From: Deltaproteobacteria bacterium HGW-Deltaproteobacteria-19
Lineage (GTDB): Bacteria > Desulfobacterota > Syntrophia > Syntrophales > PHBD01
Assembly: GCA_002841865.1 (NCBI GenBank)
Contig: PHBD01000022.1
Span: 1 to 51,882 of the forward strand
Direction of reading: 5' to 3'
DNA: 51,882 nucleotides
Of this stretch, positions 6,608 to 43,835 are shown in pieces. The notes beneath the pieces are model-generated. The model made no database searches. It was given only the letters and a program-made list of their open reading frames with translations, and had not been told where the DNA came from. Every line of letters begins with the position of its first letter. Within the stretch, counting starts at the first letter, position 1. Made by a program: the position numbers and the translations under genes.

Positions 6608-7183
6608 ATGAAAACACCCACCAAGCGCGACGAGATTCTGCAGGCAGCCTTGGAGCTGATCGCCGAGCATGGCTTCCACGGGGCACCCATGGCCATGATC
6701 GCCGAGAAGGCGGGTGTCGGGGCGGGAACGATCTACCGCTATTTCGAGACGAAGGACGTCCTGATCCGGCAGCTCTTCGAAGAGCTGAAAGCGAAGATCA
6801 TGGCGGCCCTCCTGGCAGGTCACCCAACCGGAAAACCCGCCCGGGAGCGGTTTTCCCATTTATGGAAGGTGCTGTTCCGCTACCTGGTCGCCAATCCGCT
6901 CCACCACCGGTACATGGAGCAGTATCACAACTCCCCCTACGGCGTGGCCCAGCACCGGGACAGGCTCCTGAACAAGCCGGACGAACAGGACCCCATCCGA
7001 TCTCTTTTCGAAGAGGGGATCGAACAGCAGATCCTGAAAGATCTCCCTATTATGGTGATGTTTTCCCTGGCCTTCGGACCCCTGTTCGGCCTGATCCAGG
7101 ATCAGCTCAACGGGTTCATCGAAATGGACGACGCCCTGATCGAAAAAACCGTAGGAGCATGCTGGGACGGGCTGAAACGGTAG
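6608..7183 (+). CDS. TetR/AcrR-family transcriptional regulator of the adjacent RND efflux operon
   Basis: The 191-residue regulator has an N-terminal helix-turn-helix (about residues 8-55: RDEILQAALELIAEHGF, then AEKAGVGAGTIYRYFETKD), the strongest signature of the family, and an all-helical ligand-binding C-terminal domain with the YMEQYHNSPY segment. AAAGGAG lies about 14 bp before the ATG, rather far, but no better start is in frame. Matching 18-bp palindromes lie before this gene and before the pump operon 155 bp downstream, so it very probably represses both and releases them on binding a pump substrate. It is encoded on the same strand as the operon rather than divergently. Confidence 0.92.
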   Translation: MKTPTKRDEILQAALELIAEHGFHGAPMAMIAEKAGVGAGTIYRYFETKDVLIRQLFEELKAKIMAALLAGHPTGKPARERFSHLWKVLFRYLVANPLHHRYMEQYHNSPYGVAQHRDRLLNKPDEQDPIRSLFEEGIEQQILKDLPIMVMFSLAFGPLFGLIQDQLNGFIEMDDALIEKTVGACWDGLKR

Positions 7184-38082: not shown

Positions 38083-38112
38083 TCTATAGCACAGAATTTT
38101 TCCCGTTGACAA
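38083..38112 (-). promoter_or_regulatory. Promoter of xth
   Basis: On the minus strand TTGTCA (38112-38107), 18 bp and TATAGA (38088-38083) lie about 45 bp before the xth ATG. The -35 overlaps the -35 of the divergent umuD-like gene. Confidence 0.5.
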
Positions 38113-38132
38113 TAGAACGAACGTTCTATAAA
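38106..38132 (+). promoter_or_regulatory. Promoter of the umuD-like gene with an operator between its hexamers
   Basis: TTGACA at 38106-38111 and TATAAA at 38127-38132 flank the palindrome at 38113-38128. The 15-bp spacing is shorter than ideal. A protein on the palindrome would block the promoter. Confidence 0.55.
38113..38128. promoter_or_regulatory. SOS (LexA-like) box, GAAC-N4-GTTC type
   Basis: TAGAACGAACGTTCTA is a perfect 7-2-7 dyad. It contains GAAC-N4-GTTC, the LexA-box form known from Gram-positive bacteria, and its position in the promoter of error-prone polymerase genes fits SOS control. No lexA gene is in the window. The TetR operators at 6558 and 7230 share the CGAACGTTC or similar core but have a different centre. 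Confidence 0.6.
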
Positions 38133-38141
38133 TGGAAGGCC

Positions 38142-38579
38142 ATGGACGAGAGACGAACCGCCGAGACCGCCGCCCCGATCCCCCCCGCCCTCCCCGGCCG
38201 GGTGCTTCCCCTGGCGGGAGAGGTCCGGGCCGGGTTCCCCTCCCCGGCGGAGGAGGAGCTCCGGGACATCCTCTCCTTCGACGAGTATCTCGTGCCCTTC
38301 CCCGACGCGTCCTTTCTCGTGCAGGCAAAAGACGACTCCATGGCCGGCGAGGGGATCCGGAAGGGGGATCTCGTCATCATCGAGCGGGGGCGGGCGCCGA
38401 GGCACGGCGATGTCGTCCTGGCGGAGGCGGACGGTGCGTGGCTTCTCCGGTACTTCTGCCGGGAGAAGGGGCGCGTCGTCCTCCGGACGGCCGACCCGAA
38501 GGATGCACCCGTCGTCCCCCGGTCGGAGCTGCGCCTCGGCGGCGTGGTGACCGCGGTGGTCCGCAAGTATCACAAGTAA
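38142..38579 (+). CDS. UmuD-like (LexA/peptidase S24 C-terminal) protein with Arg at the catalytic-Lys position
   Basis: The 145-residue protein resembles E. coli UmuD, the self-cleaving partner of an error-prone polymerase. It has the cleavage region VRAGFPSPAEEE (Ala30-Gly31, LexA-like Ala-Gly rather than Cys-Gly), the serine in QAKDDSMAGEGI (Ser66), GDLVIIERGRAPRHGDVV and the final LGGVVTAVVRKYHK. UmuD's catalytic lysine (K97 in DGEFTVKKL) aligns with Arg103 in DGAWLLRYF, so self-cleavage may be weak or lost. The start at ATG 38142 follows GGAAGG closely; an upstream TTG would overlap the promoter. There is no DNA-binding domain, so it is not LexA. Confidence 0.85.
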   Translation: MDERRTAETAAPIPPALPGRVLPLAGEVRAGFPSPAEEELRDILSFDEYLVPFPDASFLVQAKDDSMAGEGIRKGDLVIIERGRAPRHGDVVLAEADGAWLLRYFCREKGRVVLRTADPKDAPVVPRSELRLGGVVTAVVRKYHK

Positions 38580-38598
38580 GACGCAAGAAGACTCCCCC

Positions 38599-38652
38599 GC
38601 CCTTCCCGCCGGGCGCTCCACCCCCGCCACTCCGCGGCGGGAAGGGCTTTTT
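38599..38652 (+). terminator. Intrinsic terminator between the umuD-like gene and the polymerase gene
   Basis: A perfect 13-bp stem GCCCTTCCCGCCG / CGGCGGGAAGGGC (38599-38611, 38635-38647) with a 23-nt loop is followed directly by TTTTT. It lies 20 bp after the umuD-like stop, so the polymerase gene may depend on readthrough or its own promoter. Confidence 0.75.
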
Positions 38653-38737
38653 CGGGAGCGGAGGAGAGAAACGCCGCATCCCCCGTCTCCGCCCCGTCCG
38701 GAGAACCGGCGACGCTCCCGATTTCGAGGTACGACCC

Positions 38738-40093
38738 GTGGCGCTCTCCGGCGGCAGAACCGACGACATTCTTTTCAGCATCTCCTCGTGGCCCCGGGCG
38801 ATTCTCCACGTCGACGGGGACGCCTTCTTCACCTCCTGCGAAGAGGCCATCCACCCGGAGCTGCGCGGGAAGCCCCTCATCACAGGGGGCGAGCGGGGCA
38901 TCGTGGCCTGCGCCAGCTACGCCGCCAAGCGGATCGGGATCAAGCGGGGCGTCTCCCTCCCGGAGGCGAAACGGATCTGCCCGGGACTGATCGTCCTCCC
39001 CTCGGACTACGAGACCTACAGCCTCTTTTCCCGGCGGATGTTCAACATCATCCGGCGCTACACCCCCGACGTGGAGGAGTACTCCATCGACGAGGCCTTC
39101 GCCGACCTCACGGGCATGCGCCGGGCCCTCCGGGCCTCCTACGAAACCATCGCGGACCGGATCCGCAGGGAGATCATCAAGGAGCTGGGGATCACCGTCT
39201 CCGCGGGGCTCAGCCTCACGAAGGTCCTCGCCAAGGCGGCCTCGAAGCACCGGAAGCCCGACGGGTTCACCGTCATCCCCGGCCGGGCCATCGCCTCCTA
39301 CCTCCGGGACCTGCCGGTGGGGAAGCTCTGGGGCATCGGCCCCGCCACCACGAACTACCTGAACAAGATGGGCGTCCGGACGGCCCTGGAGTTCGCCCGC
39401 CTCCCCGAGGAGACGGTGAAGCGGCGCCTCACCAAGCCAGGAGTGGAGATCTGGCGGGAGATCCGGGGGGAGTCGGTCTATCCCGTCACGGCGGAGGAGA
39501 AGAGCACCTACTTCTCCATCAGCAAGACGAAGACCTTCGCCCCACCCTCGGCGGACCCGGATTACCTCTTCGCCCAGCTCCTCCGGAACGTTGAGTCGGC
39601 CTGCATCAAGGCCCGGCGCTACGACCTGGCGCCCCGGAGCCTCGTCCTCTTCCTCAAGCGGCAGAACTTCTCCCTCGCCGCCGCGGAGGTGCGCCTCACC
39701 CGCCCGTCCTCCTATCCCCTGGAGCTGTCGGAAGTCCTCCGGGACGCCTTCGGCGGCCTGCGGGAGCGGCACGTCCTCTACCGGGCCACGGGCGTCATCC
39801 TCATGGATCTCATGCCGGACGCCCAGGTCCAGTACTCCCTTTTCGAGGACGCCCTCCGGGCGGAGCGGGTCGAGCGGCTCTACGAGGCGGCCGACGCGGT
39901 GGGGGCGAAATACGGCAAGCACGCGCTCCACCTGGGTGGCTCCCACCTCATCGAGGAGCGGGGCAAGGGCCGGCGGGGCACCCCCACCGTCCGGGAGCGG
40001 ACGGTCCTCTACGGCGAGACCCGCCGGAGGCACCTGTCCCTGCCGATCTTCCACGGGAAGATGGACGGACCTCCAGGAGCCGGGGAGGAATGA
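38738..40093 (+). CDS. dinB: Y-family DNA polymerase (DinB/UmuC-like)
   Basis: The 451-residue translesion polymerase has the active-site carboxylates in ILHVDGDAFF (Asp26) and YSIDEAF (Asp118, Glu119), the VACASYAAKRIGIKRGVSLPEA finger motif, and helix-hairpin-helix (LPVGKLWGIGPATTNYLNKMGV). A little-finger region follows; length and motifs are closer to Pol IV (DinB) than to UmuC. The GTG 38738 is chosen because GAGGT lies seven bases upstream; the frame is open far upstream in out-of-frame sequence of the umuD-like gene. The C-terminus has no beta-clamp motif I can name. With the umuD-like gene it makes a DinB-type mutagenesis cassette. Confidence 0.92.
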   Translation: MALSGGRTDDILFSISSWPRAILHVDGDAFFTSCEEAIHPELRGKPLITGGERGIVACASYAAKRIGIKRGVSLPEAKRICPGLIVLPSDYETYSLFSRRMFNIIRRYTPDVEEYSIDEAFADLTGMRRALRASYETIADRIRREIIKELGITVSAGLSLTKVLAKAASKHRKPDGFTVIPGRAIASYLRDLPVGKLWGIGPATTNYLNKMGVRTALEFARLPEETVKRRLTKPGVEIWREIRGESVYPVTAEEKSTYFSISKTKTFAPPSADPDYLFAQLLRNVESACIKARRYDLAPRSLVLFLKRQNFSLAAAEVRLTRPSSYPLELSEVLRDAFGGLRERHVLYRATGVILMDLMPDAQVQYSLFEDALRAERVERLYEAADAVGAKYGKHALHLGGSHLIEERGKGRRGTPTVRERTVLYGETRRRHLSLPIFHGKMDGPPGAGEE

Positions 40094-40096
40094 GAC

Positions 40097-40161
40097 GGAG
40101 GCCGGGATAACCGTTTGACGATTTGCCCTTTTCCAAGTAAACATCATGGCGGTCGGCCTCC
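40097..40161. promoter_or_regulatory. Promoter and inverted repeat before the methylase gene
   Basis: TTGACG (40115-40120), 17 bp, TAAACA (40138-40143) form a possible promoter about 90 bp before the methylase start. It is framed by GGAGGCCG (40097-40104) and CGGCCTCC (40154-40161), so the transcript start could be hidden in a large stem or bound as an operator. The frame alone is suggestive, not proof. Confidence 0.4.
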
Positions 40162-40234
40162 AGAAATCCTCCCTTTTTTATCACCGTGACCGCATGGAAA
40201 GATTTATGCCGAATCCTTCAGGAAGGTTGACGCC

Positions 40235-42442
40235 TTGATCGAACGCGACTTCGATATCCCTTTCATCGCCGACCTTGCCCTCCGGGAGAAACAGATCCAG
40301 CAGAATTACCGCCCGGTGATCGCCGTCCACAAATGGTTCGCCCGGCGTCCGGGTACCCTTTTCCGCGGACTCCTCCTCTCCGAGTTTGCCTCAAAACCCC
40401 TGAAGGACTGCTTTTATGAAGGAAACGACTTCCACGGACGCCGCATCGCCGATCCCTTCATGGGCGGCGGCACCCCGCTCCTGGAAGCCAACCGGACCGG
40501 TTGCGACGTCCTCGGATACGACATCAATCCCATGGCCTGGTGGATCGTCAACCGGGAGATCGAGCACCTCGATCTGAAGAAATATTCCGATGCGGCGGCG
40601 ACATTGAGGAACACCCTGGAGGCGGAGATCGGTCCCCTCTATCGGACCCGCTGCACGCTCTGCGGATCGTCCAACGCCCATGCAAAATATTTTCTCTGGG
40701 TCAAGACAAGAACCTGCGCGCAGTGTCATGAAAGGTTCGATCTGTTCCCCGGGTATCTCCTGGCTGAAGACGTCCGGCATCCGAAAAATGTTTTTATCTG
40801 TCCCCAATGCGGTGAACTGACGGAAACGGAAAACAAGCAGCATCCTGGCGATTGCCTGTCTTGCCACGCACCGTTGATCAGGAATGGTCCGGCGGGTCGG
40901 AACAGTTGCAAATGCCCTCACTGCCAATCCGTCAACACATATACGGATGCCGGAAACGGTCCGCCCCGGCATCGGCTTTTCGCCATGGAGTATGTTTGCC
41001 TGGACTGCCGGGAGAACCATCTGGGCCGCTTTTTTAAGAAGCCCGATCAGGATGACCTTGAGCATGTCGAGAGTGCTGCCGGACGATGGGCGGGCATACA
41101 ATCGCCATTCGTTCCCGATGATGAGATCCCCGGCGGCGTCGAGACGGATCGTCTGCACCGTTGGGGATACCGGCGTTACCGGGAAATGTTCAACGAACGT
41201 CAGCTGCTGGGACTGGAGCGGAGTGCCTGCCTGACTCGGACGATTCCTGATGAACGAGTGAGAAACGCCCTGGCCACCAATCTCTCCGACTTGCTGCGGT
41301 ATCAGAACATGCTCTGCCGTTATGACACGATGGCTTTAAAGTCCCTGGATATCTTCTCTGTTCACGGATTCCCCGTCGGCCTCATCCAGTGCGAATCAAA
41401 CCTGCTTGGCATTGTGGATCCGGTGAAGGGGACCTGCATCGGCAGCGGAGGATGGGCCAACATCATCGACAAGTACCGAAAGGCTAAGGCCTATTGCGAC
41501 CATCCCTTCGAGGTACGCCATCAGGGAGGAAAAAAACAAACCATCCCTGTTCGGAATGAATGGATCGGCGACCGCTGGAATGGGGACGGCCGGAAGAAGC
41601 AAAGAGATGTGAATTTGATTTGCGGAGACGCGGCGGTTTCGGAAATACCCGAAGCCTCGTTGGACGCCGTCTTTACCGATCCCCCCTATTTTGGGAACAT
41701 CCAGTATGCCGAGTTGATGGATTTTTGCTATGTGTGGCTTCGGCGTCTGGCAGGTCTGAATCACCCTGCCTTCAGAAGCCAATCCACCAGACACAGGAAT
41801 GAATTGACAGGCAACGTCAATATGGGACGCGGCCTGGTTCATTTCACGGAGGGCATCTCTTCCGTCTACCGGCGGATGGCCAAAGCCCTGAAGCCGGGGT
41901 GCCCGCTCGCGTTCACGTATCACCATAACGATCTCAAGGCCTATTATCCCATCGCCGTGGCTATTCTTGATGCCGGCTTGACATGTTCGGCTTCATTGCC
42001 TTGCCCAGGTGAAATGGGCGCCTCTATCCACATCAAGGGGACCGGCTCTTCCATCATTGATACAGTCTTCGTCTGTAGATCGACGGGACGGATCCCTCGA
42101 TCCTGGATTCCGCAATCACCGGAAGGGGTTGCAGAACTTGTCCGCAGAGACTTGGAGAAATTGAAGGCGGGAGGCATCCATCCCACACATGGGGACGCTC
42201 GATGTATTGCCTATGGTCACCTGACCCGGCTGGCCGTCTGGCATCTTCGAACAGACTGGAAGAAGAACGAGGAAACATCCAATCGGATTGAAAAAGTGGC
42301 CCACTGGCTGTTTGCCTTCGGCGGCTGGCTGGAAGTAGAAAGGTGCCTGGCCGATCAAACATCAGATCAGCCCTTTGCTTTGATGCCAATGATCGCCGAG
42401 CATGTTTCGGAATACGGGGGGCAAGATGAAATATCCTTTTGA
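40235..42442 (+). CDS. DNA methylase with three zinc ribbons (COG1743/DUF1156 type)
   Basis: The 735-residue protein begins with DLALREKQIQQNYRPVIAVHKWFARRPGTLF, like the DUF1156 N-terminus. The AdoMet motif DPFMGGGTPLLEANRTG with YDINPMA lies near residue 70, and the catalytic DPPYFGNIQYAELMDFCYVWLRR near residue 483, as in N6-adenine/N4-cytosine methylases. Between them are CxxC pairs of three zinc ribbons (about residues 135-275: CTLCG...CAQC, CPQCG...CLSC, CPHC...CLDC). It probably methylates adenine or cytosine in DNA. A TTG or ATG start other than 40235 cannot be excluded. The next gene starts 16 bases before this stop. Base composition is lower in G+C than in the flanks, suggesting transfer. 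Confidence 0.85.
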   Translation: MIERDFDIPFIADLALREKQIQQNYRPVIAVHKWFARRPGTLFRGLLLSEFASKPLKDCFYEGNDFHGRRIADPFMGGGTPLLEANRTGCDVLGYDINPMAWWIVNREIEHLDLKKYSDAAATLRNTLEAEIGPLYRTRCTLCGSSNAHAKYFLWVKTRTCAQCHERFDLFPGYLLAEDVRHPKNVFICPQCGELTETENKQHPGDCLSCHAPLIRNGPAGRNSCKCPHCQSVNTYTDAGNGPPRHRLFAMEYVCLDCRENHLGRFFKKPDQDDLEHVESAAGRWAGIQSPFVPDDEIPGGVETDRLHRWGYRRYREMFNERQLLGLERSACLTRTIPDERVRNALATNLSDLLRYQNMLCRYDTMALKSLDIFSVHGFPVGLIQCESNLLGIVDPVKGTCIGSGGWANIIDKYRKAKAYCDHPFEVRHQGGKKQTIPVRNEWIGDRWNGDGRKKQRDVNLICGDAAVSEIPEASLDAVFTDPPYFGNIQYAELMDFCYVWLRRLAGLNHPAFRSQSTRHRNELTGNVNMGRGLVHFTEGISSVYRRMAKALKPGCPLAFTYHHNDLKAYYPIAVAILDAGLTCSASLPCPGEMGASIHIKGTGSSIIDTVFVCRSTGRIPRSWIPQSPEGVAELVRRDLEKLKAGGIHPTHGDARCIAYGHLTRLAVWHLRTDWKKNEETSNRIEKVAHWLFAFGGWLEVERCLADQTSDQPFALMPMIAEHVSEYGGQDEISF

Positions 42443-43454
42443 AGCTACAATCGAAGAAATCCTGGCGCAGCCCGACCAATATATCGATGCGGTCTTTTCC
42501 TGCCTGGAGTCGGAATTCCTTGTCATGCCCAAGGGTACGGGGTTCATCGATTATCCCGTTTTCGAAAAAGGGTACGAGGCACTGAAGGCGGCAACGGCCG
42601 GATTCAGCGATCTGAAAGCCGAAAGAATCGTTCCGGTTATCAAAAGCATGCCGATTTCCTTTGTCGTTCTTCGGGCCATGCTGGGATTCACGCCTTCCGA
42701 GTGGGGGTACATCACAACCCGGCGCACTGGCATCGCTGTATCCCAGGGATATGCTCGGACCTTCGACCGGAGGGTCCGCATGAATCCTGAAGTACCGCTG
42801 AAACCGTCCGGGATGATTGCAGCAAGGCTTGAAGCGTTGGTGAAAACTGCCTGTATTCTGCTCTGCCAGGGGGTGCCGGATGTTCAGACGGATCAGATCC
42901 ACAGGCTTGACAAGGCGGATACGAAACGAGGGTTGGATAGTATCCGCCACCTTGCTGCCATGGGAGCGCCCTATGCCATGCTTCTTTACGAACGGTTCCT
43001 TGGAAGACCCTTCGCCGGTCACCGGGATTCCGTGAGTGAACTAGTGGGTGACAGCCTTGAGTCAGCCATAGAGGATGTCCTCTCCCGTGCCGGGATCAGT
43101 TATCGCAAAACAAAACGGGCCGAGAAAATTGAAGGGTTCGATCAGACACCCGATTTCATCATCCCCAGTGAATTCAATCCCCAGGTTGTCATCGAAGCAA
43201 AAATCACAGAGGACGACGGGACGGCGCGGGACAAAGTAACCCGCATCCTCCGCCTGGTGACACTCAGTCACAATCAGGAAATATCGTCAAAACAGAGATA
43301 TGAAGTCATTGCCTGCATCGGTGGAAGAGGATTCGGCGAGAGGCGGGAAGACATGAGACGGCTGATCGAATCAACACATGGGAAAGTCTTCACACTGAAA
43401 ATGCTGGACCGTATGCTTGACCACTCAAGGCTGCGGGAATTCCGCACCCGGTGA
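42426..43454 (+). CDS. Putative PD-(D/E)xK restriction-like endonuclease paired with the methylase
   Basis: The start ATG 42426 follows GGGGGG and overlaps the end of the methylase gene. The 342-residue protein is mostly helical up to about residue 235 with no recognisable domain. Its C-terminal third holds the nuclease-like signature TPDFIIPSEFNPQVVIEAKI: Asp243, Glu257, Lys259, as in PD-x(10-30)-(D/E)xK enzymes. The rest of the core follows, with KQRYEVIACIGGRGFGERREDM. Together with the adjacent methylase this suggests a restriction-modification pair, though cleavage is not shown. It lies in the lower-GC island, and I know of no named family. Confidence 0.75.
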   Translation: MKYPFEATIEEILAQPDQYIDAVFSCLESEFLVMPKGTGFIDYPVFEKGYEALKAATAGFSDLKAERIVPVIKSMPISFVVLRAMLGFTPSEWGYITTRRTGIAVSQGYARTFDRRVRMNPEVPLKPSGMIAARLEALVKTACILLCQGVPDVQTDQIHRLDKADTKRGLDSIRHLAAMGAPYAMLLYERFLGRPFAGHRDSVSELVGDSLESAIEDVLSRAGISYRKTKRAEKIEGFDQTPDFIIPSEFNPQVVIEAKITEDDGTARDKVTRILRLVTLSHNQEISSKQRYEVIACIGGRGFGERREDMRRLIESTHGKVFTLKMLDRMLDHSRLREFRTR

Positions 43455-43504
43455 AATGAAAGACCAATGCTGTTGCTGCTGAGAAAACGGAAAGGAGGGA
43501 CGCC

Positions 43505-43768
43505 ATGATCCTTTTCACCATCGGCTTCACGAAGAAAAACGCCCGGGAGTTCTTCACCCTCCTCCACCGGCCCGGCCTGAAGCGAGTGGTGGATGTCCGC
43601 CTGAACAACACGTCCCAGCTGGCGGGCTTCACGAAGAAGGGAGACATCGAGTTCTTCCTGAAGGAGATCTACGGCCTCGATTACATCCATCTCCCCGAAC
43701 TGGCGCCGACGGCGGAGATCATGGAGGCGGGCAGGAAGGGCGGCGATATCGACATCCGCCACCTCTAG
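43505..43768 (+). pseudogene. Truncated DUF488-family protein (87 residues)
   Basis: The N-terminus MILFTIGFTKKNAREFFTLL and the segment VVDVRLNNTSQLAGFTKKGDIEFFLKEIYGLDYIHLPELAPT are typical of DUF488, whose members are 120-180 residues and end with a Cys/His segment (LLCSEA..HCHR). Here the frame stops after DIDIRHL, and the missing half is not found in another frame in the 67 bp before the next gene. A GGAGGG lies before the ATG. It is thus a decayed or truncated gene with the N-terminal half only. A short functional form is less likely. Confidence 0.7.
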
Positions 43769-43835
43769 GAAATCCACGGCCCTCCGCAGCCGGGTTCCGC
43801 CCCGGGACGGCAGGAAAAATCCGAAAGGACACCGC

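What the first reader, a model, noticed from the sequence alone, without database searches (positions are those of the whole stretch)
40235..43454. Two-gene methylase-nuclease island, candidate minimal restriction or defence module
The sequence shows overlapping genes: a DUF1156/COG1743-like DNA methylase with three internal zinc ribbons and intact DPFMGGGT and DPPY motifs, and a 342-residue protein with a PD-x(13)-E-x-K nuclease signature (Asp243, Glu257, Lys259). Known families containing DUF1156 methylases, such as DISARM-related arrays, carry helicases or DUF499/DUF3780 partners; none is present here. G+C is lower than in the flanks by eye. The combination may be an undescribed compact restriction-modification pair with recognition carried by the methylase ribbons or the nuclease N-terminus.
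Basis: partly seen in the sequence, partly recalled or inferred. Interest (0 to 1): 0.72.

Follow-up and report, generated by a model that had tools for sequence, protein, structure and literature searches.

The report
Two-gene type II restriction-modification system
Two overlapping bacterial genes encode a DNA-marking enzyme and a DNA-cutting enzyme that together look like a compact restriction-modification system, with a cutting enzyme of a family that the searched databases have no model for.

Summary
Window 40235-42442 encodes a 735-aa DUF1156/COG1743-like DNA methylase with three zinc-ribbon-like CxxC pairs, an intact DPFMGGGT and an intact DPPY. It overlaps by 17 nt a 342-aa protein with PD-x13-E-x-K (42426-43454). 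The pair has the lowest G+C in the window (55% against 64%). It lies in a segment (40057-43807) that a same-genus genome replaces with another gene.

The pair is a conserved unit. All 84 loci fetched with the nuclease as bait carry the methylase directly upstream; 79 show the same 17-nt overlap; no third gene of any relevant kind recurs. A predicted structure of the nuclease resembles the type II restriction enzymes BstEII and BsoBI over its whole length. Distant nuclease relatives sit beside unrelated methylases, and distant methylase relatives beside NotI-like and EcoO109I-like enzymes.

Best reading: an ordinary two-gene type II restriction-modification system, probably with a palindromic site. 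Its nuclease has no match above threshold in Pfam, NCBIfam or PADLOC. Activity and recognition site are untested.

The parts
40220..40226 (+). Shine-Dalgarno-like AGGAAGG, 8 nt before the TTG start of the methylase
   Evidence: read directly in the sequence; not tested
40235..42442 (+). DUF1156/COG1743-like DNA methylase, 735 aa, predicted N6-adenine (or N4-cytosine) type
   Evidence: NF042963 DUF1156_antiphage E 5e-23 but 81 bits against a cut-off of 1000; PADLOC PglXI, HmaB, DUF1156_MTase, MTase_II; model pLDDT 87.8, pTM 0.88; Trm11-like SAM fold Z 17.9, 183 residues
40451..40474 (+). SAM-binding motif DPFMGGGT (residues 73-80)
   Evidence: D73, P74, F75, G77, G78, G79 each 53 of 53 rows
40643..41599 (+). 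Large insert (about residues 137-455) between strand 2 and strand 3 of the methylase core, likely target-recognition region, with three zinc ribbons at residues 140-258
   Evidence: secondary structure of the model, alignment range 4-617 with only ~180 residues matched, cysteine counts; the recognition role is inferred
41678..41689 (+). Catalytic motif DPPY (residues 482-485)
   Evidence: invariant in 53 of 53 rows
42426..42442 (+). 17-nt overlap of methylase end and nuclease start
   Evidence: same 17-nt overlap in 79 of 84 homologous loci, measured to the position aligned with (or extrapolated to) nuclease residue 1
42426..43454 (+). Predicted type II restriction endonuclease, 342 aa: helical N-terminal domain plus C-terminal PD-(D/E)xK domain (about 200-340)
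43149..43202 (+). PD-x13-E-x-K active site (P242-D243, E257, K259)
   Evidence: D 68/68, E 67/68, K 68/68 rows
40057..43807 (.). Variable segment holding the pair and a DUF488 fragment; replaced by an AtuA-family gene in a same-genus genome
   Evidence: flanks align at 94% (to 40056) and 90% (from 43808) to G297

Best explanation
It is a two-gene type II restriction-modification system. The upstream gene makes a DNA methylase (DUF1156/COG1743-like) that binds SAM and, through a large insert with three zinc ribbons, reads a short DNA site and methylates it, most likely on adenine N6 (inferred from DPPY). The downstream gene makes a separate PD-(D/E)xK endonuclease of BstEII/BsoBI-like whole-chain fold. 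It would act as a metal-dependent dimer that reads the same, probably palindromic, site by its own helical N-terminal domain and cuts unmethylated (foreign) DNA. The conserved 17-nt gene overlap would couple translation, so that the methylase is made together with and ahead of the nuclease. Shown here by sequence: gene pair, motifs, co-occurrence, overlap, variable location. Predicted: folds. Inferred: methylated base, dimer, shared site, translational coupling, defence function.
For: (1) 84 loci were fetched with a nuclease profile: the best 80 of 307 relatives in genome contigs (84,980 species genomes), and 4 viral contigs. All 84 have a methylase homologue directly upstream on the same strand; 79 have the same 17-nt overlap. 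Besides the pair, the most frequent gene cluster is in 9 of 84 loci; five of its 12 members were scanned and are histidine kinases or a response regulator, and its members lie 0.4-5 kb away. The next is in 4 (two members scanned: inositol monophosphatase). (2) In 297 genomes of the phylum, the 11 near-full-length methylase matches at 50% identity or more are in the same 11 genomes that hold a close nuclease, side by side. (3) Nuclease model (pLDDT 86.5, pTM 0.59): BstEII is the only one of the 50 listed Foldseek matches (of 111) with probability above 0.5 (E 1e-3, prob 1.00); VIA Z 10.5, 249 of 286 residues, 4.2 A; BsoBI Z 10.3, 245 of 311, 4.5 A; then PspGI Z 8.8, 158 residues. (4) D/E/K conserved. 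(5) Distant nucleases (~30% identity) lie directly downstream of an unrelated PF01555-type methylase in 5 of 5 loci where the upstream DNA is held (L037, L038, L039, L044, L129). (6) Weak relatives L019-L021 each adjoin at least one methylase gene (Pfam for L020, tblastn for L019 and L021), and the two nucleases scanned (L019, L020) pass Pfam's DpnII cut-off. (7) Other DUF1156-like methylases sit beside NotI-like (2 loci) or EcoO109I-like (1 locus) enzymes, all above Pfam cut-offs. (8) Methylase and nuclease identities correlate, Mantel r 0.84, 0 of 2000 permutations as high, 52 loci; species relatedness not controlled.
Against: No activity, site or methylation data. The nuclease has no Pfam, NCBIfam or PADLOC match above threshold, and a profile of 68 homologues finds no PDB sequence, so the type II assignment rests on predicted fold and context. 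VIA's own note gives typical best Z of 7-8 for models without a clear match and about 14 for mostly helical ones, so Z 10.5 is good but not beyond doubt; pTM of only 0.59 and low pLDDT at residues 194-208 leave the domain orientation uncertain. The named models that score best for the methylase (NF042963 antiphage DUF1156, PglXI, HmaB) are of multi-gene systems (recalled), though NF042963 is far below its cut-off. One of 68 nucleases lacks E257 (L113, glycine), one (L072) is split, and one intact nuclease (L094) lies behind a split methylase. The co-occurrence was gathered with the nuclease as bait, keeps the closest 80 of 307, and only 48 of 84 loci hold 1.5 kb or more on both sides of the pair.
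Confidence: 0.88

Rival explanations
1. The nuclease has no site recognition of its own; methylase and nuclease form one complex in which the methylase's zinc-ribbon insert supplies specificity for both reactions, as in type I-like or type IIH-like enzymes.
For: Large conserved insert with ribbons in the methylase; tight pairing, fixed overlap and correlated divergence.
Against: Nuclease relatives at ~30% identity sit beside an unrelated ~300-aa methylase that is too short for such an insert. The nuclease matches complete type IIP enzymes over residues 2-338.
Confidence: 0.07
2. A stripped-down BREX-related, Pgl or DISARM-like system in which the methylase marks self and the nuclease is the effector.
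For: The methylase's best named models include NF042963, PglXI and HmaB, and the published topology of BREX-related methylases (insert after strand 2; PMC12839542, passage read) agrees with the model.
Against: No third gene recurs in more than 9 of 84 loci, and the two most frequent clusters are, by the members scanned, two-component signalling and inositol monophosphatase genes; 8 flanking window genes give no PADLOC hit. Three halophile plasmid loci that do carry DUF499 have methylases only ~30% identical.
Confidence: 0.03
3. A modification-dependent (type IV-like) nuclease beside an orphan methylase.
For: No direct evidence; it cannot be excluded from sequence alone.
Against: A nuclease cutting methylated DNA beside an active methylase of the same site would be self-toxic; the two genes are nearly always together, and a viral contig (L133) carries a 48%-identical methylase with no match to this nuclease in the locus, as expected for protection against such a restriction enzyme.
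Confidence: 0.02

Closest known systems
BstEII and BsoBI (type IIP restriction endonucleases, PDB 9ibq, 1dc1)
   Same: Whole-chain fold of the predicted nuclease: Z 10.5 (249 of 286 residues, 4.2 A) and Z 10.3 (245 of 311 residues, 4.5 A), from helical N-terminal domain to PD-(D/E)xK core
   Different: Only 14% and 9% identity; no sequence-profile match; specificity unknown
DUF1156/COG1743 methylases of BREX-related and DUF499-SWI2/SNF2 systems (PMC12839542, PMC7641849; passages read)
   Same: Family traits: DUF1156-like N-terminus (weak, E 0.014), insert after core strand 2, DPPY
   Different: The operons described there carry a DUF499 ATPase with a helicase-nuclease or PglZ; here only one nuclease. 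Identity to such methylases on three halophile plasmids is ~30%
Pairs of DUF1156-like methylases with NotI-like or EcoO109I-like enzymes (loci L171, L182, L185)
   Same: Two adjacent genes, one related methylase (680-742 aa) and one type II endonuclease
   Different: Methylase only 25-33% identical; nuclease of another family
DpnII and BanI (Pfam PF04556, PF24447)
   Same: Remote relatives of the nuclease, L019 and L020, pass the DpnII cut-off (23.8 and 23.5 against 23 bits), and L019 shows a sub-threshold BanI hit
   Different: The window's nuclease itself hits neither model; the link runs through 28-29%-identical C-terminal stretches of about 115-120 residues

Membership tests
Type II restriction-modification system (type IIP) | Separate, adjacent genes for one methylase and one endonuclease | tested here: met
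   84 of 84 fetched loci; 79 of 84 with the same 17-nt overlap
Type II restriction-modification system (type IIP) | Endonuclease of a known nuclease fold with intact active site | tested here: met
   Predicted PD-(D/E)xK, BstEII/BsoBI-like; D, E, K conserved. Prediction only.
Type II restriction-modification system (type IIP) | No ATP-dependent translocase or specificity subunit required | tested here: met
   By gene content only: no such gene recurs beside the pair (48 of 84 loci hold 1.5 kb on both sides), none among 8 flanking window genes
Type II restriction-modification system (type IIP) | Methylase and nuclease act on the same site; methylation blocks cleavage | not testable with these tools
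   Needs biochemistry and methylome sequencing
Type II restriction-modification system (type IIP) | Palindromic site cut within or at the site by a homodimer | not testable with these tools
   Inferred from a single methylase gene and BstEII/BsoBI resemblance
DUF1156/COG1743 methylases | DUF1156 N-terminal domain above the curated cut-off | tested here: not met
   PF06634 15.9 bits against a cut-off of 24; a resemblance, so the report says DUF1156-like
DUF1156/COG1743 methylases | Match to anti-phage DUF1156 equivalog NF042963 | tested here: not met
   81 bits against a cut-off of 1000
BREX / BREX-related systems | BrxC or DUF499-type ATPase and PglZ or helicase-nuclease in the operon | tested here: not met
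   No such gene among 8 flanking window genes and no such recurring third gene
DISARM | Helicase DrmA, DrmB and DrmC beside the methylase (genes recalled) | tested here: not met
   No PADLOC match in 8 flanking genes

The most novel reading that the evidence does not exclude
The nuclease defines a new, widespread endonuclease family. The zinc-ribbon insert of the methylase also contributes recognition for cleavage, in a methylase-nuclease complex held together by fixed translational coupling, giving a hybrid between type I and type II restriction.
Probability: 0.08. Interest if true: 0.6.

Novelty: new member of a known kind. Interest (0 to 1): 0.36.

Why it matters
If correct, it adds a restriction endonuclease family that none of the three protein-family libraries searched names, with 307 relatives in one scan of 84,980 species genomes. 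It also indicates that a methylase family described, in the two papers whose passages I saw, from multi-gene BREX-related and DUF499 systems also serves in compact two-gene type II systems with several unrelated nucleases. Practically, it offers candidate new cutting specificities and lets annotators name a gene that one plasmid record calls hypothetical.

Tried and rejected
Rejected: BREX, Pgl or DISARM remnant (no relevant third gene). Rejected: DUF488 ORF as a third component. It is a truncated fragment (87 aa, 79 of 145 positions of PADLOC PDC-M45C), and blastp with it finds nothing among the ORFs of the 84 loci (0 of 84 at E 1e-5; a very divergent DUF488 could be missed). Considered: an XRE-type HTH in the nuclease N-terminus, suggested by eye; dropped because the whole-chain match to BstEII/BsoBI explains the helical domain better.

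Led nowhere: sequence search of the nuclease against PDB (0 hits), plasmids (1 record, distant) and phage records (none); the methylase in phage records (none). Repeats at the segment's ends: nothing convincing. Paper searches listed no paper that I recognised as describing this pair: DUF1156 in 3 papers, COG1743 in 1; no BstEII structure paper turned up. Of the listed papers I read passages of two and only the listing entries of the rest. Families not appearing in the structure searches are not thereby excluded.

The umuC GC3 printed used a wrong frame and was recomputed. In one search locus L094 was measured from the 5' half of a split methylase (888 nt); its 3' half ends at 7017 with the nuclease starting at 7001. 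The 4 other loci without the 17-nt overlap have gaps of 9-48 nt.
Full report
WHAT IS THERE. The methylase starts at TTG 40235 behind an AGGAAGG box and ends at 42442; the nuclease starts at ATG 42426 and ends at 43454. The stretch is distinctly lower in G+C (55.3% against 63.7%), and tetranucleotides deviate most there. In a genome of the same genus (G297), the flanks align at 94% up to 40056 and at 90% from 43808, but the stretch between holds an AtuA-family gene instead. The pair therefore sits in a variable segment together with a truncated DUF488 gene (43505-43768).

METHYLASE. Library hits are weak and come from DUF1156 methylases, PglXI, HmaB and several type II methylase models, one of 731 aa. 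AlphaFold gives a confident model (pLDDT 87.8, pTM 0.88). Its core matches Trm11/Trm14-type SAM enzymes (Z 17.9, 183 residues aligned, model range 4-617). The core is split: motif DPFMGGGT in the first part, DPPY at 482-485 in the second, and about 320 residues inserted after strand 2, with three zinc ribbons. The cysteines and both motifs are highly conserved in 53 aligned rows. PMC12839542 describes an insert after strand 2 for BREX-related methylases (passage read). DPPY suggests adenine N6 (family knowledge); this was not tested.

NUCLEASE. No Pfam, NCBIfam or PADLOC model matches above threshold, and no PDB sequence does; sub-threshold Pfam hints include TPD, EcoRII-C and PDDEXK_11. A model from 68 sequences (pLDDT 86.5, pTM 0.59) matches BstEII (Foldseek E 1e-3, prob 1.00; VIA Z 10.5, 249 of 286 residues, 4.2 A) and BsoBI (Z 10.3, 245 of 311 residues, 4.5 A) over nearly the whole chain, then PspGI (Z 8.8). 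The lower rows, Z about 5-8, mix nucleases with unrelated Rossmann-like proteins, so only the top rows are used; the tool warns that best Z of 7-8, or more for helical models, can arise without kinship. D243, E257 and K259 are kept in 68, 67 and 68 of 68 rows.

CO-OCCURRENCE. A nuclease-profile scan of 84,980 species genomes found 307 relatives; the best 80 were kept, and a scan of viral contigs gave 4. All 84 have a methylase homologue directly upstream on the same strand; 77 of the 84 methylases are full-length by the filter, the others being cut by contig ends or, in L094, split. In 79 of 84 the overlap is 17 nt, measured to the position aligned with or extrapolated to nuclease residue 1. 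Besides the pair, the most frequent gene cluster is in 9 of 84 loci (histidine kinases and response regulators by the 5 of its 12 members scanned, 0.4-5 kb away), the next in 4 (inositol monophosphatase, 2 of 4 scanned); 48 of 84 loci hold 1.5 kb or more on both sides. In 297 genomes of the phylum, 22 have a nuclease match: 11 close ones all beside the methylase; 4 distant ones (29-33%), 3 of them directly behind a PF01555-type methylase and 1 cut by the contig end; 4 fragments only; and 3 weak matches (L019-L021) next to methylase genes. From the methylase side, the 11 near-full-length matches of 50% or more are in the same 11 genomes.

WIDER FAMILY. Beyond the close group, methylases of about 25-37% identity and 680-1003 aa have other partners (15 loci examined): two NotI-like enzymes, one EcoO109I-like, and four with a ~260-aa upstream protein. 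That ~260-aa protein also sits before related methylases on Tabrizicola, Acidiphilium and Rhodococcus plasmids and shows a YPDF...E(I/T/V)KG pattern. The partners of the remaining 8 of the 15 were not identified. On three halophile plasmids a ~30% methylase lies with DUF499, in two of them with an annotated 'alkaline phosphatase', which recalls the BREX-related systems. One viral contig (L133) has a 48%-identical methylase and no match to the window's nuclease in the locus, which runs about 2.9 kb past it, plausibly a phage's protection against such a system (inference).

MECHANISM. The simplest account is a type II restriction-modification system: the methylase protects the host's sites and the nuclease cuts unprotected ones. 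The nuclease's relatives lie beside unrelated methylases and its fold resembles self-sufficient type IIP enzymes. Recognition for cleavage therefore most likely lies in the nuclease, not in the methylase ribbons. The fixed overlap suggests translational coupling. Site, base and activity remain to be shown.

LIMITS. The co-occurrence count used the nuclease as bait and keeps the closest 80 of 307. The Mantel correlation (r 0.84, 52 loci) does not control for species relatedness. REBASE and AlphaFold DB were not available and PHROGs was not searched, so a described relative there cannot be excluded; seven paper searches listed none that I recognised.

Noticed in passing
L035:4706-5590 (G083); also L036:202-862, L042:7909-8652, L043, L041: Internally deleted copies of the pair. 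In L035 the first 189 methylase residues run in frame straight into nuclease residues 224-330, giving one 294-aa ORF; L036 and L042 hold other deletions, and L035 and L036 both rejoin at about nuclease residue 224.
   Followed up: partly
window 43505-43768: Truncated DUF488 gene inside the same variable segment (matches the first 79 of 145 positions of PADLOC PDC-M45C, E 1e-32).
   Followed up: partly
L177-L180, L210, L211, L214: A second compact pair: a ~260-aa protein with YPDF...E(I/T/V)KG sits directly before a DUF1156-like methylase (proteins 52% identical or more across seven loci). No Pfam match (4 of 7 scanned), no PADLOC match (2 of 7), no PDB sequence match (1 of 7). Possibly another unnamed restriction enzyme family.
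   Followed up: partly
84 loci, e.g. window 42426-42442: The gene overlap is 17 nt in 79 of 84 loci from many phyla, an unusually fixed arrangement.
   Followed up: partly
L019-L021: Remote relatives of the nuclease sit beside methylase genes, in L020 and L021 between two of them; L019 and L020 pass the Pfam DpnII cut-off.
   Followed up: no
L129: A viral contig carries a terminase-like gene (by eye) and, about 1.6 kb downstream, the small-methylase plus distant-nuclease pair.
   Followed up: no
window 38106-40093 and L211: umuD/umuC-like genes lie directly before the pair here and near a DUF1156-like pair on an Acidiphilium plasmid; a umuC match is in 2 of 84 other loci, so probably chance.
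   Followed up: yes
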